This document shows positions 30,094 to 44,633 of a stretch of 64,000 nt of DNA, in pieces. Position 1 is the stretch's first letter, and each line of letters opens with the position of its first letter. The notes beneath the pieces were generated by a model. That model was not told where the DNA came from, did no database searches, and was given only the letters and a program-made list of their open reading frames with translations. Source of the stretch: Pelagovum pacificum (GTDB lineage: Bacteria; Pseudomonadota; Alphaproteobacteria; Rhodobacterales; Rhodobacteraceae); contig NZ_CP065915.1 in assembly GCF_016134045.1 (NCBI RefSeq), forward strand, positions 1,054,001 through 1,118,000, given 5' to 3'. A program made the translations under genes and the position numbers.

Positions 30094-30677
30094 AGCGCGC
30101 CCTTGGTCGAGGGGATCTCGTCGGCCTTGCGCGGGTCGGGCTCGACCGCGACGCGCAGGGCGCGGGCGACTGCCTTGAACGCGGCTTCCGCAACGTGGTG
30201 GCTGTTCAGCCCGTGAACCTGATCGATGTGCAGCGTGATGCCGCCATGAGTCGACAGCGCCTGGAAGAACTCCCGCACCAGCTCCGTATCGAAGGTGCCG
30301 ATCTTGGGGGAGACGAATTCGAGCGTGAAGATCAGGAACGGTCGCCCGGACAGGTCGAGGGCGGCACGCACTTGCGCATCATCCATCGCGAGCGCGCAAT
30401 CGCCGTACCGGCGGATGCCGCGCTTGTCACCGAGCGCCTCTGTCAGGGCCTTGCCGAGCGCGATGCCCACATCCTCGACCGTGTGGTGGTCGTCGATATG
30501 CAGATCGCCGTCGCAGCGCACCTTCATGTCGATCAGCGAATGCCGCGACAGCTGGTCGAGCATGTGATCGAAGAACCCGACACCGGTCTGGTTGTCATAA
30601 GTGCCGGTCCCGTCGAGGTCGATCTCGACCGAGATGCCGGTTTCGGACGTCTGTCTGGTAACTGTCGCGCGTCTCAT
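30090..30677 (-). CDS. hisB: Imidazoleglycerol-phosphate dehydratase (HisB)
   Basis: The product has 195 residues, the length of monofunctional HisB without the phosphatase domain. It dehydrates IGP to imidazole acetol phosphate. The manganese-binding histidine motifs are present: [31 protein letters not shown] and its second-half partner [16 protein letters not shown]. It heads the hisB-hisH pair. The upstream gap to the Sel1/GYF gene is 218 bp and divergent, so the promoter must lie there. Confidence 0.96.
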
Positions 30678-30895
30678 GGCCCTGCCTTTCCCGCGGCCCT
30701 TATAGGCAGCGCGGAGGGGTTAGGAAAGATGCCCGCGAATAACGAAAAATCTTAGTGTGTAAAGGACATTAGGTTGCGTCCGGAGACGGCGGTATAGTCA
30801 GAGCACTATCGATTCGAAGTCCAGTTTCAAACAAATGACCGGGTCCGAATTGGTGTTCGTCAGTGGACACGGGCCCACGCCTTTCCGGGGGAACC

Positions 30896-32200
30896 ATGTC
30901 CAGACCGAACTTGCTTGGGAGCGCCGCGGCGCTCGCGACGGCGCTATTTCTCGCCGCACCCGTCAGCGCCCAGTCCAGCTCCATGACCGTCGACGGCGTC
31001 ACCGTCACGATCACCGGCGGCGGCTCTCAATCCGTCACGTCCGTCGACGGGGGCACGCGGATCGGGCTGAATGGAAACGTTTTCGAACTCTACCAGGACC
31101 GCGTCGTGATCGACGGCGAGGTGATGGAGACCTCCGGGTTCACCGAGGCGGAGATCGACAGCACCGATGGCGTGAAGCTCTTCCTCGACGGCGCGCTGTT
31201 CTACGAGATGACCGAGGCGCAGGTCCTTCAGGCCGCCGTGGATGACGGTGACATCGACGCGATGAATGACCTTGGCCTGCTCTACGTTGAGGGCGAGGGC
31301 GGTGTTGAACAGGATTACGCCCGCGGGATCGAGTTGATGACGGCCGCGGCGGAGGGCGGAAACCAGTATGCGCAGGCCAACCTTGCCTTCGCCTACAACA
31401 CCGGCAAATGGGGCGTCGCGCAGGATGAAGCGCAGGCCCGCGACTACGCCGGGCTGTCCGCCGAACAGGGCAACCTGATCGCGATGCGGCTCTATGGCGG
31501 GTTGCTGCTCTACGGAGAGGGTGGGGAAGCGGACATCCCGACCGGCCTCCAGATGCTGACGACCGCCGCCGAAAGCGGCGACGCCCTCGCCATGAATGCG
31601 CTCGGCGTCGCCTATGGCACCCCCGATTTCGGGGTGCAGGATGCGGCGGCGGGCACCGAATGGTATCGCCGCGGCGCCGAAGCGGGTCTCGCCGTCTCGC
31701 AGTCGAACTATGGTTTCGCATTGCTGAACGGCACGGGGACGGAGGCCGATCCGGCGGAAGCCTACCGCTGGTTCCTCGCCGCTGCAGAGCAGGGCAACAT
31801 CGTCGCGATGCGCAAGACGGGCGAGCTTCTGGCGAACGGCACCGGCGTGGAGGCCGACCTCGTCGCGGCGCGCGACTGGCTCTCGCAGGCCGCGGCGGGC
31901 GGGGACGAACCGGCGGCCGACATGCTCGAGCAACTCGATGCCTACGAGGCGGGTCTGACGGAAGAGGGCGCGACCGACACCGACGATGCTTCGACCGAAG
32001 AGACCTCGACGCCCCCCGACCTGCCGCCCGCCGAGGCGGCGATCTACTTCTATGCCGAGGCCGGAGAGCCGATCGGTCCGGTCACGCTGACCGACCTGCG
32101 CGCCGCGCTTGGCACGCTCGGTCCGGACACGCTGATCTGGTCCGATGGCATGGCCGACTGGACGCCCGCCGCGCAGGTCGAGGGCATTGTCGCGAAGTGA
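30896..32200 (+). CDS. Secreted Sel1-repeat protein with C-terminal GYF-like domain
   Basis: The product has 434 residues from the ATG at 30896 (GGGGGAA just upstream). A signal peptide ends ...APVSAQ at about residue 26. A small domain of about 75 residues follows, then about five to six Sel1-type repeats (residues 110-350) of the form 'A.NDLGLLYVEGEGGVEQDYARGIELMTAAAEGG'. An acidic Thr-rich linker leads to a C-terminal domain (residues 380-434) with FYAEAGEPIGPVTLTDLRAAL and TLIWSDGMADWTPAAQVEGI, the GYF_2-type pattern. Sel1 repeats are protein-binding solenoids and GYF folds bind proline-rich or short peptide ligands. The same GYF-like module occurs in the next gene, so the two proteins may share a partner. 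The function is unknown. Confidence 0.85.
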   Translation: MSRPNLLGSAAALATALFLAAPVSAQSSSMTVDGVTVTITGGGSQSVTSVDGGTRIGLNGNVFELYQDRVVIDGEVMETSGFTEAEIDSTDGVKLFLDGALFYEMTEAQVLQAAVDDGDIDAMNDLGLLYVEGEGGVEQDYARGIELMTAAAEGGNQYAQANLAFAYNTGKWGVAQDEAQARDYAGLSAEQGNLIAMRLYGGLLLYGEGGEADIPTGLQMLTTAAESGDALAMNALGVAYGTPDFGVQDAAAGTEWYRRGAEAGLAVSQSNYGFALLNGTGTEADPAEAYRWFLAAAEQGNIVAMRKTGELLANGTGVEADLVAARDWLSQAAAGGDEPAADMLEQLDAYEAGLTEEGATDTDDASTEETSTPPDLPPAEAAIYFYAEAGEPIGPVTLTDLRAALGTLGPDTLIWSDGMADWTPAAQVEGIVAK

Positions 32201-32221
32201 GTTTTTCAAGGGAGTGAGACT

Positions 32222-33079
32222 ATGAGACGTTTCTTTACAAGCACTTGCCTGATCGCCGGCCTGCTCGGCGCCACTGGCGTGGTGGCGCAGACACCACCGC
32301 CGCTGCCGGTCACGCCGCCGCCGTTGCCGACCCCGCCGCCGCTGCCGGCGGTCTCGGCCTTCATCGACGAGGGCGGCACACCGGGCGGCCCCTACGACCG
32401 GGAGGCGCTGACTGCCAAGGCAGACGAGGGCGCGCTGACCGCCGAGACGCTGGCCTGGATGGAGGGCATGACCGACTGGACCCCGGCGGGCGAGGTCGAG
32501 GACCTTGCCTTCCTGTTCGACGCGGACACGGCCGAAACGGAGGAGACTGCCGAAGGCATGGCTGACGCGGCAGAGCCCGCCGAGGGGATGGCCGACACGG
32601 AGGAGACCACCGAAGGGATGGTCGACGAGATGGAGGAGATGGCCGAAGAGATCGACGAGTCGCTCGAGGTCACCACCGATGAGAGCGAGACGGCGGAGTC
32701 GGGCGCGATCGACCCCGCGACCGCGATCGTCGGCGCGTGGTACGAGGAATCCCCGGTGCCGATCCCCGGCGTCGGCTTCGGCCTCGGCAAGCTGACGACG
32801 ACGTATGGCGCGGATGGAAACGTTTCCGCCGAGGGCACGATCGAGCTGGACATGCAGGGTATGCCGCTTGAGCTGCCGATGTCCCTGACGGGGAGCTACA
32901 CGATCACGCCGACGTCGGGCGAAGCGTTCGACCTTGCAATCGACGGCGAGATCGAGGTGACCATTCCCGGACTCCCGCCCGAAACCGGACCGATGCAGGA
33001 AACCGTAACGCTCGAGTTCCTGGACGCCGACACGATGCGCGACCCGGAGTCGATGGGGACCATTACGCGGGTGGAGTAG
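32222..33079 (+). CDS. Secreted GYF-domain protein with Pro-rich N-terminus and beta-rich C-terminus
   Basis: The product has 285 residues. After a signal peptide (ending GVVAQ) comes a proline-rich run of TPPPLP repeats (residues 23-46), then a GYF_2-like module (GGPYDREALTAKA ... AWMEGMTDWTPAGEVEDL, about 50-100). A very acidic linker (about 100-160, rich in Glu, Thr and Met) follows. The last 125 residues (IVGAWYEESPVPIPGVGFG...) look like a beta-rich lipid- or ligand-binding domain. The gene is 21 bp after the Sel1/GYF gene with its own RBS (AGGGAG), so the two form an operon ended by a strong terminator. The Pro-rich segment could be a ligand for the neighbour's GYF-like module; this is inference. 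Confidence 0.85.
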   Translation: MRRFFTSTCLIAGLLGATGVVAQTPPPLPVTPPPLPTPPPLPAVSAFIDEGGTPGGPYDREALTAKADEGALTAETLAWMEGMTDWTPAGEVEDLAFLFDADTAETEETAEGMADAAEPAEGMADTEETTEGMVDEMEEMAEEIDESLEVTTDESETAESGAIDPATAIVGAWYEESPVPIPGVGFGLGKLTTTYGADGNVSAEGTIELDMQGMPLELPMSLTGSYTITPTSGEAFDLAIDGEIEVTIPGLPPETGPMQETVTLEFLDADTMRDPESMGTITRVE

Positions 33080-33088
33080 TCGGAAAGG

Positions 33089-33115
33089 GAGGCGCTGCGG
33101 CCGGCGCAGCGCCTC
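33089..33115 (+). terminator. Intrinsic terminator after the GYF operon
   Basis: A perfect 11-bp stem GAGGCGCTGCG / CGCAGCGCCTC with a five-base loop begins 9 bases after the stop codon and is followed by TTCGA. It also lies 26 bases from the end of the convergent regulator gene. Confidence 0.75.
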
Positions 33116-33140
33116 TTCGATGCGGACCCGTCCGAAGCGG

Positions 33141-33836
33141 TCAGTTCGACAACAGGCTGTTGAGTTTCCGGACCGGCGGGACCGGCTCGTCATGGCCAAT
33201 GATCTGGATATGACCATCGGCCATGCGCTTGAAGCCGACCGCCGAGAATCCGCCGAATCGCTGACGAGGTAGGTCAGTGAGGTCGAACAGACTGTAGGAA
33301 GCGGTTCCCGTGGCGGCCTCGTCGACTTCGATCAGGCCGATGATGCGGTTGTCGCCGACCGGTTCGGCGACGATGAAGCTCGTCTCGTCGTCGCGTCCCA
33401 TGGAGTTGCAGATGACGATGCCGCCGTGACTGTCGCCGAGGTTGGCGTAGATGTGCGGGCGTCCCTCGCCGGGCTTGGGGAAGGTGACCTTGCCGCCCAG
33501 CAACTCGATCATCCCTGCGAGCAGAAGTACCGGACCGGAGGCCGATCCGGCGTCGGCCGGCAGGTCCGTCTGATTGTCCAGCGGGCGTCTGCCGAGCGCG
33601 AGCCAGGATTCATCGACCTGAAGCAATTCCGCGATGGCATGCAGCTTTCCATAGCGCGGACGCGCCAGACCCCTGTACCATTTATTGATCGTGTTGGATG
33701 AGACGTCGACCCGCGCTTCCTCGAGCAGCCGGTTCTTGAGCCATTTCTGACGTCCCTGAACCATCTCCGGAGAATCGGGATGACTCTCCACTGCCAGCCT
33801 CAAACGGTAGCCGAATTCCTTCGTGGTATCGCGCAA
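33141..33836 (-). CDS. XRE-like HTH transcriptional regulator divergent from the giant RTX gene
   Basis: The product has 231 residues. The start is probably the TTG at 33836: GGGGGGAAG lies 5 bases upstream and no in-frame ATG occurs before the HTH. An N-terminal helix-turn-helix of Cro/CI type covers about residues 30-80 (KNRLLEEARVDVSSNTINKWYRGLARPRYGKLHAIAELLQVDESWLALG). The C-terminal 130 residues contain short beta strands (GGIVICNSMG, NRIIGLIEVDEAATG) and are not a recognised ligand domain. It is divergent from the 8.7-kb RTX gene across 577 bp of AT-rich DNA and is the obvious candidate regulator of it. That link is inferred from position only. Confidence 0.8.
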   Translation of the reverse strand: MRDTTKEFGYRLRLAVESHPDSPEMVQGRQKWLKNRLLEEARVDVSSNTINKWYRGLARPRYGKLHAIAELLQVDESWLALGRRPLDNQTDLPADAGSASGPVLLLAGMIELLGGKVTFPKPGEGRPHIYANLGDSHGGIVICNSMGRDDETSFIVAEPVGDNRIIGLIEVDEAATGTASYSLFDLTDLPRQRFGGFSAVGFKRMADGHIQIIGHDEPVPPVRKLNSLLSN

Positions 33837-34413
33837 CTTTGCTTCCCCCCGTCAGTCCCAGGGGCCAGCGCCGCAAACATTTGCTTCGCGACATATTCCA
33901 CCCAAACGTGACCGATCTCTTAAACGTCTACTAAACAATCCCTAAGGGCAGCCCCCTGCTGCCCTTAGGTCACCTAGACTTCCCCCTATCTGCTCGTATT
34001 GCAAGAAGATTTTGAAAATTCTTTTGATATTTCACGCATGAGATTACCAAAATTCGTATTCACCTTTCGAGTCCTGACTCGCTGAACAATTCAGTCTTGC
34101 GATGATTTCACCTTTAAGGTGGATTTACGTGGATATTGGAGTTGAATGCTTGAATCAACTTTTGGCTAACCAATGGCCTTTAAGCAAATTTTGTTTGTCA
34201 GTCATGAGTCAACTGCCCAACTTCCGCCAGATTTGGTGCATCTAAATATCTGAAAATAAACAATTAATACGAATATGTCTTTAATAGGGCAATATTTGTT
34301 GACGAATTGGTCGCTGTCGACAACCATCTGGCACGACGCGGTCAGCTGGGGCTGCGGGGAGTAATCGGAAGCCGCTTGTTTGCTTTTGCGGCAGAATACC
34401 GGGGGATAATTTA
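33837..34413. promoter_or_regulatory. Long AT-rich divergent intergenic region with a perfect 12-bp hairpin
   Basis: This 577-bp stretch has no convincing gene. From about 33970 to 34310 it is visibly AT-rich in an otherwise very GC-rich window. At 33941-33969 a perfect 12-bp inverted repeat (CCTAAGGGCAGC / GCTGCCCTTAGG, loop CCCCT) stands alone. A Shine-Dalgarno (GGGGGAT) lies just before the giant gene. It probably holds both promoters and control sites; a small RNA is possible. No specific site could be proved. Confidence 0.6.
33941..33969. other. Perfect 12-bp inverted repeat in the divergent control region
   Basis: CCTAAGGGCAGC pairs perfectly with GCTGCCCTTAGG around CCCCT. It sits 105 bases upstream of the regulator start and 445 bases upstream of the giant gene. 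It has no T tract on either side, so it is more likely an operator or RNA structure than a terminator, but this is not settled. Confidence 0.55.
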
Positions 34414-37400
34414 ATGGCAGCTGGTAACACGGTAACGGGTACGCCCGGTGCGGATTCTATTGACGAAAACTTTAGCCCTGTCGGCACGACCGATAACGAT
34501 GATGTCGTAATCGCGTCGGGCGGCAACGATACGATCAACGGCCAAGGCGGCTCCGATACGGTCGATTATTCGGGTAATACGAGCGGGGTCTTCGTGAACC
34601 TCGAGAACGGCACCGCGTTCGGTGGTGCAGAGACCGGGTTCGACTCGCTGGTGAGCATCGAGAATGTCATCGGATCCGCCGGTGACGACGTCATCTCGGG
34701 CAATGCCGATTCGAACACGATGTTCCTCTCGGGCTCCAGCCTGGGCGGCGGTGACCAACTTTCCGGAGACGGCTCCGGCGCAGTCGGCGGTATCGATACC
34801 GTCGATGGCAGTCTGTTGAGCCAAGACCTCGATATCGACCTCGCAGCGGGAACGGCGACGGGCAGCGGGGTGAACTCCACGATCTCCGGATTCGAGAATG
34901 CCACGGGCGGCTCGGGCAACGACACGCTGACCGGCTCCGCGGACGGCAACACGCTGTCCGGCGGCGACGGCGACGACCGGCTCGTGGGCGGCGACGGCGC
35001 CGACAGCCTGATCGGTGGAGAAGGCACGGATACCGCTGTTTTTGAAGGCGGAACCTTCTCCTCCTACACTCTCACCGATACGGTCGACGGAGTGCAGGTG
35101 CAGGGACCGGACGGTGTCGACCTCGCGGCTGTCGAACTGCTCGAGTTTTCGGACGCGACCGTTCTGATCGTCGGCGATGGCGGCTTCGCCACAATCCAGG
35201 AGGCGGTCGACGCGGCCAGCGCGGGCGACACGATCTTCATTCGGGCCGGCACGTACGCCGGCGGCGTCGATGTCGACAAGGAACTGAGCTTTGTCGGGCA
35301 GGGCGCGGCGACGGTGATCGACGCCACGGGCGGGGCCGGCTTCACGCTTGGCGCCATCGGCGCAACCGCGACCGTGTCCTTCGACGGCCTGACCATCAAC
35401 AACGCCTCGTCGAGCGGTATCCGCAGCACGGCATCGACTGTCCTCGGCACGCTCGAAGTCGAGAATAGTTCGATCAACGAGTCGGGGTCCAACGCGATCG
35501 AAGTTCGCGAGAACGGCATTTCCGACGTTCACGTCCTGAACTCCACGTTCAACGCCAACGGTGGTGGCACGTCCGGCGGCGACGGCGCCCTGATCTTCTT
35601 CCAGTACAACGGCGACGCGCTGATCCAGAACGTCACGATCACCGGCGATGGCGTCGGCGAGCCGTTCCCGGCCGAAGGTCCGGCGACTCACTCCGGCTCC
35701 CAGACGGGGATCCAGTTCCGGGGCGATACTGGCAGCCTCGGCAACGTGGTCATGGACAACGTCGAAGTGAACGGCAGCCACAGCCGTCAGCCCGTCGGTT
35801 TCTTCAACTACGACGACATCGACGGTCTTTCGATGAACGACGTCACGATCAGCGCCGACTCCACCGGCTATGACGTCGCGCTGAACATCGACGGCGTGGG
35901 CGGTGACGTCGACCTGACGAACACCAATCCCGCGAACGGGGCGAGCTTCACCAACGTCAGCTTCCCGTCGCTGGTCGTGAACGGTGACCAGGTCGCCCTG
36001 CAAGGCGATGCGACCGAGAACACGCTCACCGGCGGTGACGAGGCGAACCTCGTGCGCGGCTTCGGAGGCGACGATACCCTGCGCGGGAACGGCGGAGACG
36101 ACATCATCCTCGGCGATACGCGCGACGGCACACCCGACAGCGATGTCGACACGGCGCTCTTCTCGGGCAACCTGACCGACTACACGATTTCCTCGTCCCC
36201 GACCGACATCGGCTTCGGCAGCATCCCGGGCCTGTCCGTGTCCGGTCCCGACGGCGACGACTTCGTCGGGCAGGTCGAGATCCTGAGCTTCGACGGCGGT
36301 GACACCGTCCGTATCGTCGGCGCAGGAGGCTACGACACGATCCAAGACGCCATCGACGCCGCCAATGACGGGGACACCATCCTCGTCGCCGGCGGTGTCT
36401 ATGACGAGCTGATCAACCTGAACAAATCCGTCGCCATTCAGGCGATGAGCGGCGAGTATGTCACTGTCGCTGGCGTCACTGTGGACGAAACCGCTGTTGA
36501 CGGCGCGACCGACATGGCGAGCATCGGCGGGCTGGTGCTCGACCCGACCCTGTCGGCTGCCGGCAACTACGGCATCCTGCTGAACAGCGACTTCGGTGAC
36601 AGCCTTCAGGGCTCGCTGGTGATTTCCGGCGTCTCCAACGCGACGGACATCGACGGCAACGGCTTTGCTCGGAACGGTCTCTACGTGAACGGCGGCGGTA
36701 GCGACCTCGACGTGACGGTCACGAGCTCGACCTTCACGGCGAACGGCCACAGCACGTCGAGCGGTGGTGGCGGCGACATCCTGCTCTTCGAGTTCACCGG
36801 CGATGCCAGCTTCTCCGGCGTGGCTGTCGAGGGGACCGGAAGCGGAACCGCCGACCGCGGCATCCAGGTGTCGGGCTTCGTCGATGACTCCGACAAGAAC
36901 CTGGAGTTCTCGAACAACCCGATCGGTACGGTGATCTTCGACGACGTCACCGTGAACGGCGACTACGCGAAGGACGGGATCCTCTTCCAAGGGTACAACG
37001 ACTTCGGCGGCCTGAGCCTGACCGACGTGGTCATCGGCGCCGAGAGTGCCTCCACCTTTGGCTGGACGGCGACCTACTTCGAAACCGAAACCGGTAACGG
37101 TAGCGCGAATCCGGCGGACGGAACCGTCAACATCGACGTCTCCGGCATCACTGTCGATCCGTCGGTCGTGGCCGGCAACTTCGGTCTGAACCCGAATCCG
37201 GGCGTTTTCGTCGGCGGCTATTCAGCGCCGGACAGCGTCACGGGCAGCGACGGCGCCGACAGCTTCTTCGACGGTCACGCCGATAGCGGTGACGACACCG
37301 TGGCGATGGGCGCTGGAGATGACGTGGTCTACGCGGCTGCCGGGAACGACTCCATCGACGGGGGCGAGGGCACGGATACGGCGATCTACGCATCCGACCT

Positions 37401-40400
37401 CAGCAGCTACGACCTTGGCGTCTCCACGGATGCGGACGGCCGTGTCACCTCGTTCGACACCGTTACCGACACGGACCCGTCGCTCGCCGGAGACGAAGGC
37501 ACGGATACGCTGACCGGTGTCGAGCGTGTCACCTTCTGGGGCAACGATGGGCTGTCCGAGAACGATCTGACGCTCGACCTGACCCAGTCGGTCCAACTGT
37601 TCAACGACTCCGGAGACCTTGTCGGTACGTTCGACACGATCCAGGACGCGGTTGATGCCGCCAGCGACAACTTCCGGATCGAGCTCGACGGATCGGCCAC
37701 CTACCGCGAGCAGGTCGTCATCGACGGGCTGGAAGGTCTGGTCATCGACGGCAATGGCGCGACGGTGGAGATGGTCGACAACCCGGCCACGACCAATGCC
37801 ACGACGGGCAACAACCGCGAGGCCGTCTTCACCATCGAGAACGGTGAGGCGACGCTCGACGACCTCGTCATCGACGGGCGCGGCCTCGGCTCGTCCAACC
37901 AGTTCGACGGTGTCTACTTCGGCAACGCCTCGGGCACGGTGACGAACTCCACCGTGACCGGCATCCGCGCGCCGCTTCAAGGTGACGATACGCCGGCTGG
38001 CACCCAGCTCGGTCGGGCAATCTACGCCAATAATACCGATGGCGGCTCGAGGACAGTCGAGGTCAGCAACAACACCATCGTCGACTTCCAGAAGAACGGC
38101 ATCGACCTGCGTGGCGAAGGACTGACCGTCAACGTCACGGGCAACACGATCGAAGGATCAGGCTTCCTGCCGGCATCGAACGCCATCGCGCAAAACGGCA
38201 TCGTGCTCGTCTTTGGTGCCACGGGGACCATCTCCGGCAACACCATCTCCGAGATCGGCTTCGCGCGGGGTGACTACGCGCCGGTCGGTATCCTCGGCTT
38301 CGACGCCGGCGACGGCGTTCAGGTGACGGGCAACACTATCACTGGCCCGGTGGACGGCACCGGTGCGGCGATCCCCGCCAACTTCAACGCGATCAACTTC
38401 TCGGCGGGCGAGGCGGACGACCTCGTCATCACCGGCAACACGATCGAAGGGGCGCTCACCGGCATCACGCTGTCCGACAACGTCGACAACCCGACGGTCT
38501 CGGGCAACACGTTCATCGACATGGTGTCCGAGTTCCTGTCCAACACTGGGGAGGGAACGCTCAACGGTTACAACGTCGAGCTGTACGGCGGAGCCAACGA
38601 TGCGTCGCTCTCCTTCACCGCGACGGACGGTGCGGACCTCGTGATCGGCACCGATGCCGCTGACGAGCTGAACGGCGGCGCCGGAAACGACGTCATCAGC
38701 GGTGGCGACGGCGACGACACGGTGACCGGCGGAGAGGGCGACGACGTGCTGGACGGCGGCCGGGGCGACGACGTGCTCGACCTCACCGCAGGCGGCGACG
38801 ACGTGGCCGACGGTGGGCTCGGCACGGCCGACGTCGCGCAGCTCAAGTACAACGGAGGTGCGGCCTACGACGCAGCGGCCTTCGACTTCTCGGGCTTCGA
38901 CGCGACCGACGGCGTGAACGGCGACACCATCGGCATCGACGATACCGGTGATGGCAACACCGACCGCACCGTGACGCTCAGCGGCGTCGAGTTGCTTGAG
39001 GTCACTGCCGACGGCTTCTCGACCTTCATCGTCCGCGAGGGCATGTCCGTCCAGGCGGCCATCGACGCGGCCGAGACCGGCGACACGATTGTCATCGGAC
39101 CGGGCACGTTCGACGAACTGCTCACGGTCAACAAGACGCTGAACTTCGTTGGCGCCAACGCCGGACTGGCGGGGGATGACGAGGGCCGCGGCCCGGGATC
39201 GGTCCTCGCAGGCGCGGTCGTGACGGCCTACAATGTCCAGTTCGACGGCATCGCGATCGATGGTTCGTTGTCGCAATCGTCCACCGTGGGCATCAGCGGT
39301 GCTACCGTCGCGGGCATAGGCATCTCGAATAGCACTTTCGAGAATGTCTCGGGAGACAGCGTCGCCTTCAGCGCGTCGTCCACTCTGACGATCAGCAACA
39401 ACGCCTTCGAAGACGCCGGCATCCAGCTGTCGGGGGTGGTCAGTTCCGTCGTCAGCGGCAACAGCTTCAACGATGCCGAAAGCAAGGTCGACGGCACGTC
39501 CACAGGGACGGAGTTCAGCGGCAACAGCTTCAGCTTCGACGGTGATGCGACTGACGAAGCCGGCCTCGTCATCGGCGGCTCCCTTCTGGCGCAAGGTCTG
39601 AGCGTCACCGGCAACAGCTACTCCGGCCTCGCCAAGGGGATCGTGGTGGTCTCCGCGGACGGATCGGTCAGCATCTCCGAGACGATCACCAGCTTCACCG
39701 ACATCGGCCCCGACCTGCCGACGCCCTCCGAAGGGCCGGCGATCGCGGTCGAGGAATCGCTGGAAGAGCTGGGCATCGTCGACGAAGCCGTGCTGGCGAG
39801 CACCGGCAACACCGCGACGACGTGGGACCTCGACGCTTCGGGACAGCCCGAAGACGGAGGCTTCGGCTACTTCGGCAGCCTGTCGGGCGCCATCGCAGCG
39901 AGCCAGGATGGCACGACGGTCGTGGCGAGTGATGGTGACTTCTCCGGCGAAGGCGCGATCACGGTCGATCCTGAAGGGCTCACCGTTTCGGCGGGAGCCG
40001 GCGCGACCGGGATTTCGCTGACGCTCGGCGCTGCCTCGGACATCGAGCTTGACGGCGCGTCCGACATCGCGGTCACCGGCAATGCCGACGGTAACGCGAT
40101 CACCGGCAACGACGGGGCGAACAACCTCGACGGTGGCGCGGGGGATGACGTTCTCGAAGGCGGTGCGGGCGACGACGTCCTCACCGGCGGGGACGACATC
40201 GACACCGTGGTCCTTGCAGGCGGTATCTCCGGCTACGACATCTCCGTGACGACGCTCGGCAACGGGTTCGTCGACGGCTTTACGTCGGTGGAGGATATCG
40301 ATGTCCTCGCGGACGGCGACGACGGGACGGATACGCTGTTCGGCATCGAGCGGCTGGTCTTCCAGAACGGCACCGCCGGAACGCCCGGAGATGACACCGT

Positions 40401-43131
40401 GCTCAGCGTCGCCGACCCGGTCCAGCTGGTGTCCTCTGCCGGTGTGATCATCGGCACCTTCGCGACCATCCAGGCCGCGATCGATGCCGCCACCGGTGGT
40501 ATCGGTGAAAAGGTCCTGCTGGCCGACACCGTGTTCAGCGAGGATGTCCTCGTGGACAAGGAGCTGACGATCCTCGGTGCGCTCACCGGTGTGGCGGGTA
40601 CCGACGGGTCCCGCGGGACCGGCGAAAGCGCGATCGAAGGTCAGGTCACCGTGACCGCCGACAATGTCACGCTCGACGGCCTCTTCTTCGACATCAACGC
40701 CTCGGGAGCCAGCGGCGGCCAAGGCGTGGTGATGCTGCGGGGTGAGGGAGGCACCGTCAGCAACTCCGTCTTCATCGAAGGCAGCGACGACGGTACCACG
40801 CCGTACGCCGTGATGATTGAAGGTGAAGGCAACAGCGTCGAGGGCAGTCTCGTCGATCGGTCTGGTGCCAGCGGCGCTCCGAGCCTCGGCAACCCGGCGA
40901 TCTTCGCCAGCGGTGCCGACAGCCTGTCGATCACCGGCAACACGCTGATCGCGGGGATCGTGGGCATCGTGACCGGCGACGGGACCGCTCCGGGAGCGGG
41001 GCTGACCGTGACCGGCAACACGATCACGGCGGCGGCGGTGAACAGCGACTCGATCTTTGTCACCGGACCGGGCTTCGGACCGCTCCCCGACGGGTTCGAT
41101 CCGATCGACGCGACCGTCGACTTGTCTGGCAACACCTACACGACCGGCAAGGGCGTGCAGCTGCGGGGCACCGGGGAGGCTGACGACTTCAGCGGCTTCG
41201 GAACCTCCGGTCAGGATCAGTTCAGCGGCTACGGCGGGGAGGACCTGTTCGTCTACGGTCCTGGCGGCGACAGCTACGATGGCGGCGATGACGTCGACAC
41301 TGTGGATGCGACGGCCGAGACCGACGACATCGTCGCCGATCTGTCCGCCGGAACGCTGGAAGTTGGAACCGACGCGTCCACCTCGCTCGCTTCGATCGAA
41401 CGCTTCCTGTCGGGCGCTGGCGATGACACGATCACCGGCAACTCAGCCGACAACACCATCGATGCGGGCGCCGGCAACGACGTCGTGATCGGGGCGTCCG
41501 GGGACGACGACCTCCGGGGCGGAACGGGCACCGACACCATCAGCTACGCGAACGATACCGCGGGTCTGCAGGTGGTGTTGAACTCCTTCGCCATCGGGGC
41601 GGGTATCGGCGCGGACTTCCTCTCCGGCTTCGAGAACCTCGAGGGTGGACAGGGTGACGACACGCTTACCGGCGACAGCGGGGACAACGTGTTTTTCGCA
41701 ACGCTCGGGTCGGACTCGATCAATGGTGCCGGCGGCTCGAACACTTACGACGCTTCCGGGTCTACCAATCGCGTTATCGCCGATCTCGGCTTCGGGACGG
41801 CTGGCGGCTCGGATGTCGGTGTCGACAGCCTGACCAACATCCAGAACCTGGTCGGTGGTCTCGCCGACGACCAGCTCACGGGTGACGGAAACGCCAACAC
41901 CATCGACGGCGGGATCGGCAACGACATCCTGTCCGGCGGAGGTGGCTCGGACTCGATCGTCGGTGGCTCCGGCAATGACCGGATCGTGGCCGGCGACGGC
42001 GACGACGAGATCGACGGCGGCGCGGGCTCCGGTGATACACTGGTGATGTCCGGTGACCGTTCGGACTACCTGATCGACTTCGTCAACGGCATGATCGAAG
42101 ACCTGAAGGGAACGGAGGGGACCGACAGCTTCACCGGCATCGAGTTCCTCGAGTTCAAAGACCGGACAATTGAGTTCTCCCCGGCCGAGCCCGATGGCAG
42201 CTTCGACTTCGACGGAGACCTCGCCAGCGATGTTTTCGTGATCCGTGCGAATGGCTCTCATGAGTTGCTCAGTGGCCAATCCGGGAATTCGATCGACAAC
42301 TTGGGAGTTGCTCCGCACACCGCGGTCGGAGCCGGAAACTTCGGCGCCGGATCGGACAGCCCGATCCTCGTCGATGCCAACGGCACGACCTACTGGGACG
42401 ATGGCTCCAGCCGGAACCGGATCGGTGGCGGCAACGAAAGCGTCGGCGTCGGGGACGTCAATGGTGACGGCTTGGACGAGATCATCTTCGCCAACGCCAA
42501 CACCGGCGGCACCTATGCGCTGTCCGGCGACACCTCTGACACGATCCGCTACAACATGCCTCTGAGCACGCTGGCTGCCGTCGGTGACTTCAACGGTGAC
42601 GGAGCGGATGACATCCTGCTCCGCGCACCGAACGAAGGCCGCTTCTCCTTCGGAGATGGTCCGACGGGTGCCAACGAGTTTATCGGGCGGAAGAACTTCG
42701 ATCTGCTCGGGGTCGGTGACTTCGACGGAAACGGGGTCGAGGAAGCACTGATGGTCAACGGGAAGGGCGTGAAGTTCTTCATCGATGGCACGAACGGTGC
42801 CGCCCAAGGCAAGCTGGATGGTGCGAAGTTCCGTGATGTGGCTGGTGTCGGCGACTTCAACGGCGATGGTGCAGATGATGTGCTGCTCGACGATGGCGGA
42901 ACCTTCATCTTCCAGGATGTCGCCGCGGGTCAGACCTTCGAACTCACCACTGCCAACGAGTTGATGGCGATCGGGGACTACAACGGTGACGGCATGGACG
43001 AGCTTCTGTTCCAGCGGAATGACGGATCGTTCTACACTTGGCTGCCGAGTGAGGACGAGCTCGGCACCGAACTGAACCTCGGTGCCGTGGACGACGTGGT
43101 CGCCGACCTGTTCAACACGGGACTGTTCTAA
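34414..43131 (+). CDS. Giant modular RTX / beta-helix / FG-GAP surface protein (adhesin-like)
   Basis: The product has 2905 residues and no cysteine that I can find. There is no N-terminal signal peptide, as expected for type I secretion. Blocks of Ca-binding GGxGxDxLx nonapeptides lie near residues 30-75, 165-215, 530-570, 945-990, 1400-1460, 1885-1935, 2260-2360 and 2480-2545. They alternate with right-handed beta-helix units whose N-terminal cap 'xTIQxAIDAAxxGDTI' starts at residues 258, 640, 1073, 1544 and 2016, with a diverged copy near 1817. The final 310 residues hold FG-GAP/VCBS-type repeats with DxNGDGxD calcium loops (VGDVNGDGLDE, VGDFNGDGADD, IGDYNGDGMDE) as in integrin-like propellers. 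An adhesin or extracellular glycan-binding role is likely. No ABC/MFP type I secretion genes are adjacent. The RBS is GGGGGA, and a strong terminator follows. Confidence 0.9.
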   Translation: MAAGNTVTGTPGADSIDENFSPVGTTDNDDVVIASGGNDTINGQGGSDTVDYSGNTSGVFVNLENGTAFGGAETGFDSLVSIENVIGSAGDDVISGNADSNTMFLSGSSLGGGDQLSGDGSGAVGGIDTVDGSLLSQDLDIDLAAGTATGSGVNSTISGFENATGGSGNDTLTGSADGNTLSGGDGDDRLVGGDGADSLIGGEGTDTAVFEGGTFSSYTLTDTVDGVQVQGPDGVDLAAVELLEFSDATVLIVGDGGFATIQEAVDAASAGDTIFIRAGTYAGGVDVDKELSFVGQGAATVIDATGGAGFTLGAIGATATVSFDGLTINNASSSGIRSTASTVLGTLEVENSSINESGSNAIEVRENGISDVHVLNSTFNANGGGTSGGDGALIFFQYNGDALIQNVTITGDGVGEPFPAEGPATHSGSQTGIQFRGDTGSLGNVVMDNVEVNGSHSRQPVGFFNYDDIDGLSMNDVTISADSTGYDVALNIDGVGGDVDLTNTNPANGASFTNVSFPSLVVNGDQVALQGDATENTLTGGDEANLVRGFGGDDTLRGNGGDDIILGDTRDGTPDSDVDTALFSGNLTDYTISSSPTDIGFGSIPGLSVSGPDGDDFVGQVEILSFDGGDTVRIVGAGGYDTIQDAIDAANDGDTILVAGGVYDELINLNKSVAIQAMSGEYVTVAGVTVDETAVDGATDMASIGGLVLDPTLSAAGNYGILLNSDFGDSLQGSLVISGVSNATDIDGNGFARNGLYVNGGGSDLDVTVTSSTFTANGHSTSSGGGGDILLFEFTGDASFSGVAVEGTGSGTADRGIQVSGFVDDSDKNLEFSNNPIGTVIFDDVTVNGDYAKDGILFQGYNDFGGLSLTDVVIGAESASTFGWTATYFETETGNGSANPADGTVNIDVSGITVDPSVVAGNFGLNPNPGVFVGGYSAPDSVTGSDGADSFFDGHADSGDDTVAMGAGDDVVYAAAGNDSIDGGEGTDTAIYASDLSSYDLGVSTDADGRVTSFDTVTDTDPSLAGDEGTDTLTGVERVTFWGNDGLSENDLTLDLTQSVQLFNDSGDLVGTFDTIQDAVDAASDNFRIELDGSATYREQVVIDGLEGLVIDGNGATVEMVDNPATTNATTGNNREAVFTIENGEATLDDLVIDGRGLGSSNQFDGVYFGNASGTVTNSTVTGIRAPLQGDDTPAGTQLGRAIYANNTDGGSRTVEVSNNTIVDFQKNGIDLRGEGLTVNVTGNTIEGSGFLPASNAIAQNGIVLVFGATGTISGNTISEIGFARGDYAPVGILGFDAGDGVQVTGNTITGPVDGTGAAIPANFNAINFSAGEADDLVITGNTIEGALTGITLSDNVDNPTVSGNTFIDMVSEFLSNTGEGTLNGYNVELYGGANDASLSFTATDGADLVIGTDAADELNGGAGNDVISGGDGDDTVTGGEGDDVLDGGRGDDVLDLTAGGDDVADGGLGTADVAQLKYNGGAAYDAAAFDFSGFDATDGVNGDTIGIDDTGDGNTDRTVTLSGVELLEVTADGFSTFIVREGMSVQAAIDAAETGDTIVIGPGTFDELLTVNKTLNFVGANAGLAGDDEGRGPGSVLAGAVVTAYNVQFDGIAIDGSLSQSSTVGISGATVAGIGISNSTFENVSGDSVAFSASSTLTISNNAFEDAGIQLSGVVSSVVSGNSFNDAESKVDGTSTGTEFSGNSFSFDGDATDEAGLVIGGSLLAQGLSVTGNSYSGLAKGIVVVSADGSVSISETITSFTDIGPDLPTPSEGPAIAVEESLEELGIVDEAVLASTGNTATTWDLDASGQPEDGGFGYFGSLSGAIAASQDGTTVVASDGDFSGEGAITVDPEGLTVSAGAGATGISLTLGAASDIELDGASDIAVTGNADGNAITGNDGANNLDGGAGDDVLEGGAGDDVLTGGDDIDTVVLAGGISGYDISVTTLGNGFVDGFTSVEDIDVLADGDDGTDTLFGIERLVFQNGTAGTPGDDTVLSVADPVQLVSSAGVIIGTFATIQAAIDAATGGIGEKVLLADTVFSEDVLVDKELTILGALTGVAGTDGSRGTGESAIEGQVTVTADNVTLDGLFFDINASGASGGQGVVMLRGEGGTVSNSVFIEGSDDGTTPYAVMIEGEGNSVEGSLVDRSGASGAPSLGNPAIFASGADSLSITGNTLIAGIVGIVTGDGTAPGAGLTVTGNTITAAAVNSDSIFVTGPGFGPLPDGFDPIDATVDLSGNTYTTGKGVQLRGTGEADDFSGFGTSGQDQFSGYGGEDLFVYGPGGDSYDGGDDVDTVDATAETDDIVADLSAGTLEVGTDASTSLASIERFLSGAGDDTITGNSADNTIDAGAGNDVVIGASGDDDLRGGTGTDTISYANDTAGLQVVLNSFAIGAGIGADFLSGFENLEGGQGDDTLTGDSGDNVFFATLGSDSINGAGGSNTYDASGSTNRVIADLGFGTAGGSDVGVDSLTNIQNLVGGLADDQLTGDGNANTIDGGIGNDILSGGGGSDSIVGGSGNDRIVAGDGDDEIDGGAGSGDTLVMSGDRSDYLIDFVNGMIEDLKGTEGTDSFTGIEFLEFKDRTIEFSPAEPDGSFDFDGDLASDVFVIRANGSHELLSGQSGNSIDNLGVAPHTAVGAGNFGAGSDSPILVDANGTTYWDDGSSRNRIGGGNESVGVGDVNGDGLDEIIFANANTGGTYALSGDTSDTIRYNMPLSTLAAVGDFNGDGADDILLRAPNEGRFSFGDGPTGANEFIGRKNFDLLGVGDFDGNGVEEALMVNGKGVKFFIDGTNGAAQGKLDGAKFRDVAGVGDFNGDGADDVLLDDGGTFIFQDVAAGQTFELTTANELMAIGDYNGDGMDELLFQRNDGSFYTWLPSEDELGTELNLGAVDDVVADLFNTGLF

Positions 43132-43163
43132 AGGGTCCAGCACTCGCTCCAGCAGCAAGCAGG

Positions 43164-43193
43164 AAAGCGGCGTCTCTCTCGAGGCGCCGCTTT
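43164..43193 (+). terminator. Intrinsic terminator of the giant RTX gene
   Basis: A 13-bp stem AAAGCGGCGTCTC / GAGGCGCCGCTTT (one T-G pair) with TCTC loop begins 32 bases after the stop and is followed by TCATTT, giving TTTTCATTT. This is the best-looking intrinsic terminator in the window. Confidence 0.85.
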
Positions 43194-43367
43194 TCATTTG
43201 GCGCAGTGCATTGAGGCTCGGCAACTCGCGGAGAGCGCCACAGCGCCACGGAGAGCGGCCGCGACAGGCGAAGGTGAGCAATTGGGCACACGGGGCCGTC
43301 CGGGCACTCAGGGCTGCCCACGCAGCCATGAGTGTCGAGGCCCGTTCACCTGTCCGGCCACAAAAGA

Positions 43368-43396
43368 AAGACGCCGCGCAGATCGCGTGGCGTCTT
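43368..43396 (-). terminator. Terminator for the membrane-protein gene on the minus strand
   Basis: A 12-bp stem AAGACGCCGCGC / GCGTGGCGTCTT (one G-T pair) with AGATC loop lies 19 bases beyond the stop of the minus-strand gene at 43415. On that strand it is followed by TCTTTTGTGG; on the plus strand by TTGTCC, so it may be bidirectional. Confidence 0.7.
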
Positions 43397-43414
43397 TTGT
43401 CCTGACGTGCCGGC

Positions 43415-44410
43415 TCAGGCCGGGTCGGGGTCGGGGGCGGAGGTGTTGGGGATCGTTCGACCGCCGGTGGCCCATGTGACGGCCTTCTCGCCGAGCGTCC
43501 GGAACTTGCCGGATGCGTTTTCCAGCTTGGCGACCCACTCCGGGTTCGGCTGCTGGCCGTCGGTGACGCGGAAGAAGGCCTGCAGCAGGCAGGCGATGGC
43601 GAAGGGCTCGATCAGCGCGACCTTCACGGCCCATGCGAACAGGATCGCGAAGACGAAACCTCCGGCCGACCAGGCTCCGGGGATCAGGTAGACGACCGCT
43701 GCTGCCGGGGCGAGCATCAGGAAGAAGACGAGCAGCGAGATGCCCCACGTGATCAGCGTCAGCCAGGCCGCGCTCGCCAGCATCGCCTTGCCGTTCTGGG
43801 CATAGAGCACGAGCGCATCGCGCGACGACGCCCAGGGGTTCTCGGACCGGGTGCGGATGTTGTGGGCGAGGATGACCTCATCGACCAGCCCCACGGCGAC
43901 ACGCAGGTAGGCCCGCACGATGCTCATCACGTTCTGCAGTCCGGGGATCGGCATGATCGCCATGAGCCCCTGGATCAGCCCGGTGATCGCCTTGACCACG
44001 CCCTTGATGAGCTGGTCGAGACCGAACAGCACCGAGGCTTCGCCGAACCGCTCCGTGACGATGTTGCGGGCATAGGCGATCTGGCCCTGACCGTCGGGGA
44101 TGTCGCGCCCTTCGAGGTATTCGACCATGACGGCGATATGGCCGGCCTTAACGATGTAGAGGATGTATTCCCGCAGGAAGTAGAGGATGCCGGCCGTCAG
44201 CGCGAAGCCGATGATGCCGCCGTAGAAGGTGGTGCCGGCCCGGAATTCCGCGTCGCCGAAAGCGCCGATGCCCCAGCCGATCCCCGCGCCGGTGCCGGTG
44301 ACGAGGACATAGGCGACGGCGATCCCGAAATAGACGATCATCCGGAAGACGAGGAACGGCAGCGTCTTGCGCAGGATGGCGAACGCCGTGCCGGTACTGA
44401 AATTCATCAT
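43415..44410 (-). CDS. Multi-pass membrane protein of unknown function
   Basis: The product has 331 residues from the ATG at 44410, chosen for GGGAG 7 bases upstream. It has at least five hydrophobic segments: FLVFRMIVYFGIAVAYVLV, GGIIGFALTAGILYFL, a weaker central stretch around GLIQGLMAIMPIPGLQNVM, LTLITWGISLLVFFLMLA with AAAVVYLIPGAW, and GGFVFAILFAWAVKVALIEPFAIACLLQAFF. The C-terminus is polar (TIPNTSAPDPDPA). The family is not recognised. It stands alone between the RTX terminator and a tRNA gene. The topology suggests a helical inner-membrane protein of channel or carrier type, but there are no motifs to confirm this. Confidence 0.8.
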   Translation of the reverse strand: MMNFSTGTAFAILRKTLPFLVFRMIVYFGIAVAYVLVTGTGAGIGWGIGAFGDAEFRAGTTFYGGIIGFALTAGILYFLREYILYIVKAGHIAVMVEYLEGRDIPDGQGQIAYARNIVTERFGEASVLFGLDQLIKGVVKAITGLIQGLMAIMPIPGLQNVMSIVRAYLRVAVGLVDEVILAHNIRTRSENPWASSRDALVLYAQNGKAMLASAAWLTLITWGISLLVFFLMLAPAAAVVYLIPGAWSAGGFVFAILFAWAVKVALIEPFAIACLLQAFFRVTDGQQPNPEWVAKLENASGKFRTLGEKAVTWATGGRTIPNTSAPDPDPA

Positions 44411-44558
44411 TGAAATACTCCCATGACCTAACGTCATGGTCACCCGGAGCCTGCCACCGTCGCAAGGCAGAAAAACCAGACCTTTCGCAGTCCGGTCAGG
44501 GATTCAACGAACTCCCCGGAGGGGGTCAATTCTGCGCATTTGACGGGAAGGACCGAAT

Positions 44559-44633
44559 TGGAGCGGGTGATGAGATTCGAACTCACGACCCTTACCTTGG
44601 CAAGGTAATGCTCTACCCCTGAGCTACACCCGC
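44559..44633 (-). tRNA. tRNA-Gly (anticodon GCC)
   Basis: Minus-strand cloverleaf of 75 nt with encoded CCA: acceptor GCGGGTG / CACCCGC, D arm GCTCAGGGGTAGAGC, anticodon arm TTACC-TTGCCAA-GGTAA giving GCC, T arm GTGAG-TTCGAAT-CTCAT. All parts are intact. Confidence 0.96.

What the first reader, a model, noticed from the sequence alone, without database searches (positions are those of the whole stretch)
34414..43131. 2905-residue modular protein: RTX calcium blocks alternating with beta-helix modules, ending in FG-GAP-like repeats
Five clear copies of an 'xTIQxAIDAA..GDTI' beta-helix cap (nt 35185, 36331, 37630, 39043, 40459) and one diverged copy (39862) appear, most preceded by an RTX block and a 'GTDTA-Y-L-G...FxD' spacer. 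The C-terminal third ends in DxNGDGxD calcium repeats. I see no cysteine in the whole protein. The combination of three calcium/carbohydrate-type repeat folds in one polypeptide suggests an adhesin or extracellular matrix protein. What it binds is unknown.
Basis: partly seen in the sequence, partly recalled or inferred. Interest (0 to 1): 0.75.

Follow-up and report, generated by a model that had tools for sequence, protein, structure and literature searches.

The report
Giant calcium-repeat and beta-helix protein
A 2905-residue bacterial protein is built as a repeating chain of calcium-binding repeat blocks and beta-helix rods with a propeller-like domain at its end; it looks like a secreted sugar-binding or matrix protein assembled from interchangeable parts that related bacteria combine in other orders, though its function is untested.

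Summary
ORF 34414-43131 (+) encodes 2905 aa without cysteine: five [RTX block - spacer - beta-helix] units (caps at aa 257, 639, 1072, 1542, 2015), a short cap-only module (aa ~1812-1890, supported through a relative), then RTX - spacer - FG-GAP repeats. The commonest helix type occurs in 7 of 394 sampled family genomes, own included. Across the six multi-module proteins the helix types stand in different orders and behind different spacer types, which suggests mosaics. A 1221-aa protein from another family of the class carries the same three parts, so the combination is not unique. The gene lies in a ~12.7 kb segment missing from two congeners; none of four congeners held has it. The genome has at least two type I ABC/HlyD sets, unlinked to the gene. 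No enzyme signature was found. Best reading: a type I-secreted, Ca2+-folded extracellular rod that binds polysaccharide or surfaces; export, folding and binding are inferred. Structure prediction never ran (queue full in 21 tries). New variant of a known kind.

The parts
34414..43131 (+). whole ORF, 2905 aa, no Cys, no N-terminal hydrophobic segment
   Evidence: SD-like GGGGGA before the ATG seen in the upstream sequence printed
34930..35034 (+). RTX block 1 (listed stretch)
   Evidence: PF00353 hit, (genome coordinates minus 1054000)
35014..35181 (+). spacer 1 (GTDTA...VELLEF...), perhaps the cap of the RTX roll
   Evidence: boundaries by eye
35182..36012 (+). beta-helix 1 (type A)
   Evidence: cap HMM; end by eye
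36004..36108 (+). RTX block 2
36136..36327 (+). spacer 2
   Evidence: boundaries by eye
36328..37209 (+). beta-helix 2 (type A)
   Evidence: end by eye
37279..37380 (+). RTX block 3
37360..37626 (+). spacer 3 (SVQLF type)
   Evidence: boundaries by eye
37627..38598 (+). beta-helix 3
   Evidence: (best PF13229 stretch aa 1210-1373); end by eye
38644..38751 (+). RTX block 4
38782..39033 (+). spacer 4 (FIVREGMS type), hardly related to the others
   Evidence: z -1.2 to 3.1
39034..39798 (+). beta-helix 4
   Evidence: end by eye
   Evidence: against G080; not clearly similar to sister modules
40102..40209 (+). RTX block 5
40183..40455 (+). spacer 6 (PVQLV type)
   Evidence: z 21 to spacer 3; boundaries by eye
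40456..41187 (+). beta-helix 6
   Evidence: end by eye
41434..42030 (+). C-terminal RTX stretch: listed hits 41434-41541, 41623-41721, 41932-42030
   Evidence: PDB matches of aa 2480-2590
42016..42183 (+). spacer 7 before the FG-GAP domain
   Evidence: z 8.1 to spacer 1; aligned with a 'Large adhesion protein' chain
42166..43128 (+). FG-GAP region, five clear blades at 42442-43098
30714..43469 (.). segment holding the gene, two GYF_2 genes (one with Sel1 repeats) and an HTH-like gene; absent between the flanks in G003 (and nearly the same in G004)

Best explanation
A type I-secreted RTX exoprotein that works as an extracellular, calcium-rigidified rod. It is exported unfolded without a signal peptide (no Cys, very acidic). 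Outside the cell Ca2+ folds each RTX block together with its spacer, which perhaps caps the RTX roll, and this favours folding of the beta-helix that follows. The result is a chain of five beta-helix modules and a terminal FG-GAP domain offering several glycan- or surface-binding faces, so that the protein cross-links or adheres to (exo)polysaccharide. It is probably non-catalytic. Shown here: module order, homology, relatives, secretion genes in the genome. Inferred: export route, Ca2+-driven folding, binding.
For: Domain hits. RTX plus the first part of the spacer matches solved RTX chains: CyaA 2.9e-25, serralysins from 3.1e-12, AlgE6 and AlgE4 R-modules 1.8e-4 and 5.6e-4 for aa 160-256; AlgE4 9.8e-6 for aa 2480-2590, where a 'Large adhesion protein' chain (9cse, 1.4e-7) aligns through nearly the whole spacer 7. 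Helix profile A1 matches pectinesterase structures (8.5e-7). No hydrophobic N-terminus. PrtD-type ABC 641 bits beside HlyD 374 bits; LssB-type ABC 695 bits with HlyD 313 bits. All six family relatives bearing the type-A helix also carry RTX motifs, and many end in an acidic-plus-hydrophobic tail. Precedent: pRL90140 of Rhizobium leguminosarum, an RTX plus beta-helix repeat protein marked as missing from a prsD mutant's supernatant (PMC2275737, passages). AlgE R-modules bind Ca2+ and alginate and AlgE4 is rod-shaped (PMC4444821, passages).
Against: No secretion gene among the neighbours scanned. The C-terminus (VDDVVADLFNTGLF) follows the last FG-GAP blade and deviates from the tails of most relatives. 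No retention module, so how it would stay near the cell is unknown. No ligand evidence. No structure model. The TolC-like gene of the LssB set is far under its family cut-off (38.8 against 225 bits). In AlgE matches the spacer itself is covered only in its first part.
Confidence: 0.58

Rival explanations
1. A modular polysaccharide-modifying enzyme, an AlgE-like chain in which beta-helix modules are catalytic and RTX modules bind substrate.
For: Module alternation as in AlgE A/R modules (PMC4444821, passages); the cap region matches pectinesterases and, weakly, a chain named BcAlyPL6 (1.2e-4, no stretch significant on its own; that it is an alginate lyase is recalled from its name).
Against: No DPH motif anywhere; helices H3, H4, H6 have no His. 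In 10 type-A helices the columns conserved in at least 9 of 10 are 12 Gly plus one each of I, Q, A, D, Y, S, F, N: no His, Arg, Lys or Glu (this was done for type A only). No enzyme family over its cut-off.
Confidence: 0.17
2. A cell-anchored biofilm adhesin of the LapA/BapA kind.
For: Giant size, RTX repeats, secretion sets in the genome; a BapA_N-type protein stands beside one ABC set; one solved 'Large adhesion protein' chain matches the last RTX-spacer.
Against: No retention module or Ig/cadherin extender match in this protein; the BapA-like neighbour is the likelier substrate of that set.
Confidence: 0.15
3. A surface or matrix scaffold without specific ligand, or a released RTX exoprotein of unknown role like the abundant ones of marine Roseobacter strains.
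For: An RTX-type protein was the most abundant exoprotein of Phaeobacter strain DSM 17395 (PMC3933643, start of abstract and passages).
Against: Gene found in one of the five species of the genus held, so not a basic envelope part; module diversity argues for varied binding (inference).
Confidence: 0.1

Closest known systems
AlgE mannuronan C-5 epimerases (Azotobacter): A-modules (beta-helix) and R-modules (RTX)
   Same: Alternation of right-handed beta-helix and RTX modules; RTX plus early spacer matches AlgE4/6 R-module structures
   Different: No DPH motif; five different helices; FG-GAP end; no AlgE A-module among the structure matches listed
pRL90140 of Rhizobium leguminosarum bv. viciae 3841
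   Same: RTX plus beta-helix repeat, no signal peptide, type I (PrsDE) dependent secretion (PMC2275737, passages)
   Different: 79 kDa, two 32-aa helix repeats, no FG-GAP mentioned in the passages; its sequence was not compared here
   Same: type-A helix (A2, 115 bits) - RTX - second cap/helix - RTX - FG-GAP, in that order
   Different: two helices, not five; begins with a helix; tail DEFVL; FG-GAP only just over its cut-off (PF13517 27.0 against 26.9; PF01839 20.1 under 22.1) and PF13229 under its cut-off
G213 metalloprotease-like proteins with RTX and C-terminal FG-GAP (L112, L113 read, of five matches)
   Same: RTX followed by C-terminal FG-GAP blades, 35-37% identical to the C-terminus here
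   Different: protease-like N-terminus, no cap hit
LapA / BapA / BapP biofilm adhesins
   Same: Large Ca2+-linked proteins, secreted or thought to be secreted by type I systems (BapP: PMC12153261, passages)
   Different: Ig/cadherin-like sandwich repeats; BapP's propeller is N-terminal and five-bladed

Membership tests
RTX exoproteins | Ca2+-binding nonapeptide repeats GGxGxDxUx | tested here: met
   PF00353 140.6 bits over cut-off 23; Ca2+ binding itself not measured
RTX exoproteins | no cleavable N-terminal signal peptide | tested here: met
   best 19-residue hydropathy mean near the N-terminus 0.36; no dedicated predictor used
RTX exoproteins | C-terminal type I secretion signal | tested here: inconclusive
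   tail compared by eye with relatives; deviates
RTX exoproteins | a type I ABC/HlyD pair in the genome | tested here: met
   two sets over the family cut-offs, not linked to the gene
RTX exoproteins | secretion by that system | not testable with these tools
   needs a deletion strain
Right-handed parallel beta-helix | profile match | tested here: met
   PF13229 75.7 bits over 25.9, 5 stretches
Right-handed parallel beta-helix | fold | not tested
   Structure prediction answered 'machine busy' in all 21 tries
FG-GAP propeller | FG-GAP repeats | tested here: met
   PF01839 45.9 over 22.1; PF13517 41.8 over 26.9; not listed in the full-length scan
FG-GAP propeller | seven blades | tested here: inconclusive
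   five clear; two more only by eye
AlgE mannuronan C-5 epimerase | DPHD catalytic motif | tested here: not met
   no DPH anywhere in the protein; motif as given in PMC4444821
AlgE mannuronan C-5 epimerase | A-module followed by R-modules | tested here: inconclusive
   RTX and early spacer like R-modules; helices match pectinesterases, not AlgE A-modules, in the listed structures
LapA/BapA retained adhesins | N-terminal retention / BapA_N domain | tested here: not met
   no Pfam or NCBIfam match, while the 950-aa protein elsewhere in the genome matches BapA_N (PF22783 31.1 over 27)
LapA/BapA retained adhesins | Ig/cadherin-type extender repeats | tested here: not met
   none over a cut-off

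The most novel reading that the evidence does not exclude
A combinatorial family of type I-secreted 'glycan rods' in Alphaproteobacteria: RTX-spacer units act as standard Ca2+-folding connectors behind which different beta-helix modules are swapped by recombination, giving each strain its own set of polysaccharide specificities, much as polymorphic surface proteins do, with the FG-GAP end as one of several exchangeable tips.
Probability: 0.3. Interest if true: 0.65.

Novelty: new variant of a known kind. Interest (0 to 1): 0.42.

Why it matters
If the RTX-spacer unit is a general connector that helps any following beta-helix fold on contact with Ca2+, it would explain how very large beta-helix chains can be exported unfolded, and it would make the strain-by-strain swapping of glycan-binding modules testable, module by module. 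If it is only one more large RTX exoprotein, it still adds an architecture (multiple beta-helices plus FG-GAP) that none of the papers listed in eight searches of an open-access library is about, judged by titles and abstract beginnings (three of the listings were cut at 12 papers).

Tried and rejected
Paralogues in the own genome: beyond the gene itself only RTX-level matches; the helix profile A2 hits only this gene. Whole-protein search of 61 genomes: 16 match at E <= 1e-10, own included; most of the listed matches lie in RTX stretches. Plasmid collection: no match for module 2 or the C-terminus; G080's protein gave 4 partial matches. One genome-contig scan gave six loci: five match only the FG-GAP end, one (Caulobacter, L042) spans RTX and FG-GAP. 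Linked accessory gene: the convergent neighbour 43415-44443 (membrane-protein-like by eye, no family match) is in 43 of 394 family genomes at E <= 1e-15, against 7 of 394 with the helix at 1e-12, and lies far from the giants in G030 and G202; rejected as a partner. Chance: rejected by shuffles. I first counted the sixth cap as unsupported (note) and corrected this. Structure prediction of module 1 (alignment A1): 'machine busy' in all 21 tries. The C-terminus was never sent and no fold search was made.

Full report
WHAT IS THERE. The ORF at 34414-43131 (+) is real: 2905 aa, third-position GC 0.83, an SD-like GGGGGA before the ATG, no Cys, D+E 460 against K+R 66. The order is RTX1-spacer1-helix1-RTX2-spacer2-helix2-RTX3-spacer3-helix3-RTX4-spacer4-helix4-short cap module-RTX5-spacer6-helix6-RTX6/7/8-spacer7-FG-GAP (RTX hits, caps, the rest by eye). 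Caps lie at aa 257, 639, 1072, 1542 and 2015, that is 382, 433, 470 and 473 aa apart. Motif counts exceed shuffles, and all ten pairs of full helices are related beyond 100 shuffles. Spacers 1, 2, 3, 6 and 7 are mutually related (z 3.3-21); spacer 4 is not clearly related to any (z -1.2 to 3.1).

FOLDS. RTX: 140.6 bits; helix: PF13229 75.7 bits. The 12-row profile A1 hits a pectinesterase structure at 8.5e-7, by its cap region. FG-GAP passes its cut-off when the C-terminus is scanned alone but is not listed in the full-length scan. RTX plus the first part of the spacer matches solved RTX chains: CyaA first (2.9e-25), serralysins (3.1e-12), AlgE6/AlgE4 R-modules (1.8e-4, 5.6e-4). For the last RTX-spacer, a 'Large adhesion protein' chain (9cse, 1.4e-7) aligns through nearly the whole spacer. 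So the spacer is perhaps the C-terminal cap of each RTX roll (inference). No fold prediction could be made.

RELATIVES. With a profile of the type-A helix (A2; rows: own x2, G008, G030) 7 of 394 family genomes match at E <= 1e-12 and 8 of 385 class genomes, own included in both; three of the seven family hits supplied the profile. The six family relatives are 625-3232 aa and all carry RTX motifs. Of the seven class relatives beyond the own genome, four carry 9 to 40 GGxGxD motifs in the matching frame (G475, G482, G490, G576), G720 has five, and G051 and G543 have none. So the helix type also occurs without RTX. G576 combines type-A helix, RTX, a second cap, RTX and FG-GAP in 1221 aa; its FG-GAP is only just over the Pfam cut-off and its general Beta_helix score just under. 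The FG-GAP end itself matches in 2 of 394 family genomes at 1e-6: own, and G213 at 35-37% in five frames, of which the two I read are metalloprotease-like.

MOSAICISM. Helices behind 30 caps from seven proteins were compared all against all (435 pairs). Spacer classes came from simple patterns and 6 of 30 stayed unclassed; groups depend on the cut (z > 8 or z > 12). At z > 8 the helix groups cross proteins: own helix 3 groups only with a G202 helix (z 19.7) that stands behind another spacer class; type A follows class i here and in G030, G062 and G202 but class ii in G008; one group of nine helices combines all three spacer classes. The order of groups differs in each of the six multi-module proteins. 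This fits recombination of modules; no tree test was done.

LOCUS. The DNA match to G003 stops at window 30713 and resumes at 43470, points 86 nt apart in G003; for G004 it stops at 30630 and resumes at 43462, 175 nt apart. In G002 hisB and terC are about 2.2 kb apart; in G001 the hisB side was not looked at. So the gene sits in a ~12.7 kb segment with two GYF_2 genes (one with Sel1 repeats) and a weak HTH match. None of the four other genus members held has the gene: no whole-protein match at 1e-10 (four candidates scored per genome) and with profile A1 only RTX-spacer matches in G004.

SECRETION. A PrtD-type ABC (641 bits) with HlyD (374 bits) stands at 3.62 Mb; an LssB-type ABC (695 bits) with HlyD (313 bits), a gene with a weak TolC match (38.8 bits, cut-off 225) and a BapA-like 950-aa protein stands at 2.81 Mb. 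Neither is linked to the gene, which is not rare for RTX substrates (recalled). The tail VDDVVADLFNTGLF differs from the acid-F-hydrophobic tails of most relatives.

FUNCTION. An enzyme is unlikely but not excluded: no DPH motif, no His in helices 3, 4 and 6, no conserved His/Arg/Lys/Glu in ten type-A helices. Ten neighbour genes from five relatives' loci were scanned: most are housekeeping, one is another RTX protein, and glycosyltransferase genes stand near the giants of G030 and G080, suggestive only. I favour a released or loosely held polysaccharide-binding rod.

LITERATURE. Passages were read of PMC4444821, PMC8824271, PMC3933643, PMC12153261 and PMC2275737; all other papers were seen only as search listings with abstract beginnings. 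None of the papers listed in eight searches is about this architecture by title or abstract beginning; listings were capped and subscription papers are mostly not held.

Noticed in passing
window 38898-38988 (-): ARAGORN calls a tRNA-Gly inside the giant ORF on the opposite strand; probably a false call, since a tRNA-Gly with the same anticodon (gcc) is also called at 44559-44633, in a stretch 91-92% identical in two congeners.
   Followed up: partly
L119/L120 (G004:C6, from about 152.5 kb): A congener carries a far larger RTX frame (10320-aa open frame; 82 GGxGxD motifs in one 20-kb stretch) beside the hisF side of the same his cluster; several FDSEGRPxESVVTFDDGR repeats at its end.
   Followed up: partly
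L051:4942-12627 (own genome 2.81 Mb): An LssB-type type I set (ABC, HlyD, weak TolC match) with a 950-aa BapA_N/Big_6 adhesin-like protein.
   Followed up: partly
L054 (own contig C2, 41 kb): The small contig carries two further RTX frames of 968 and 790 aa with no Cys.
   Followed up: no
window 30863-33079: Two adjacent genes with GYF_2 domains (one also with Sel1 repeats) inside the segment that is absent from congeners.
   Followed up: no
L112, L113 (G213): Two metalloprotease-like proteins (of five matching frames) that end in FG-GAP blades and a DEFVF tail.
   Followed up: partly
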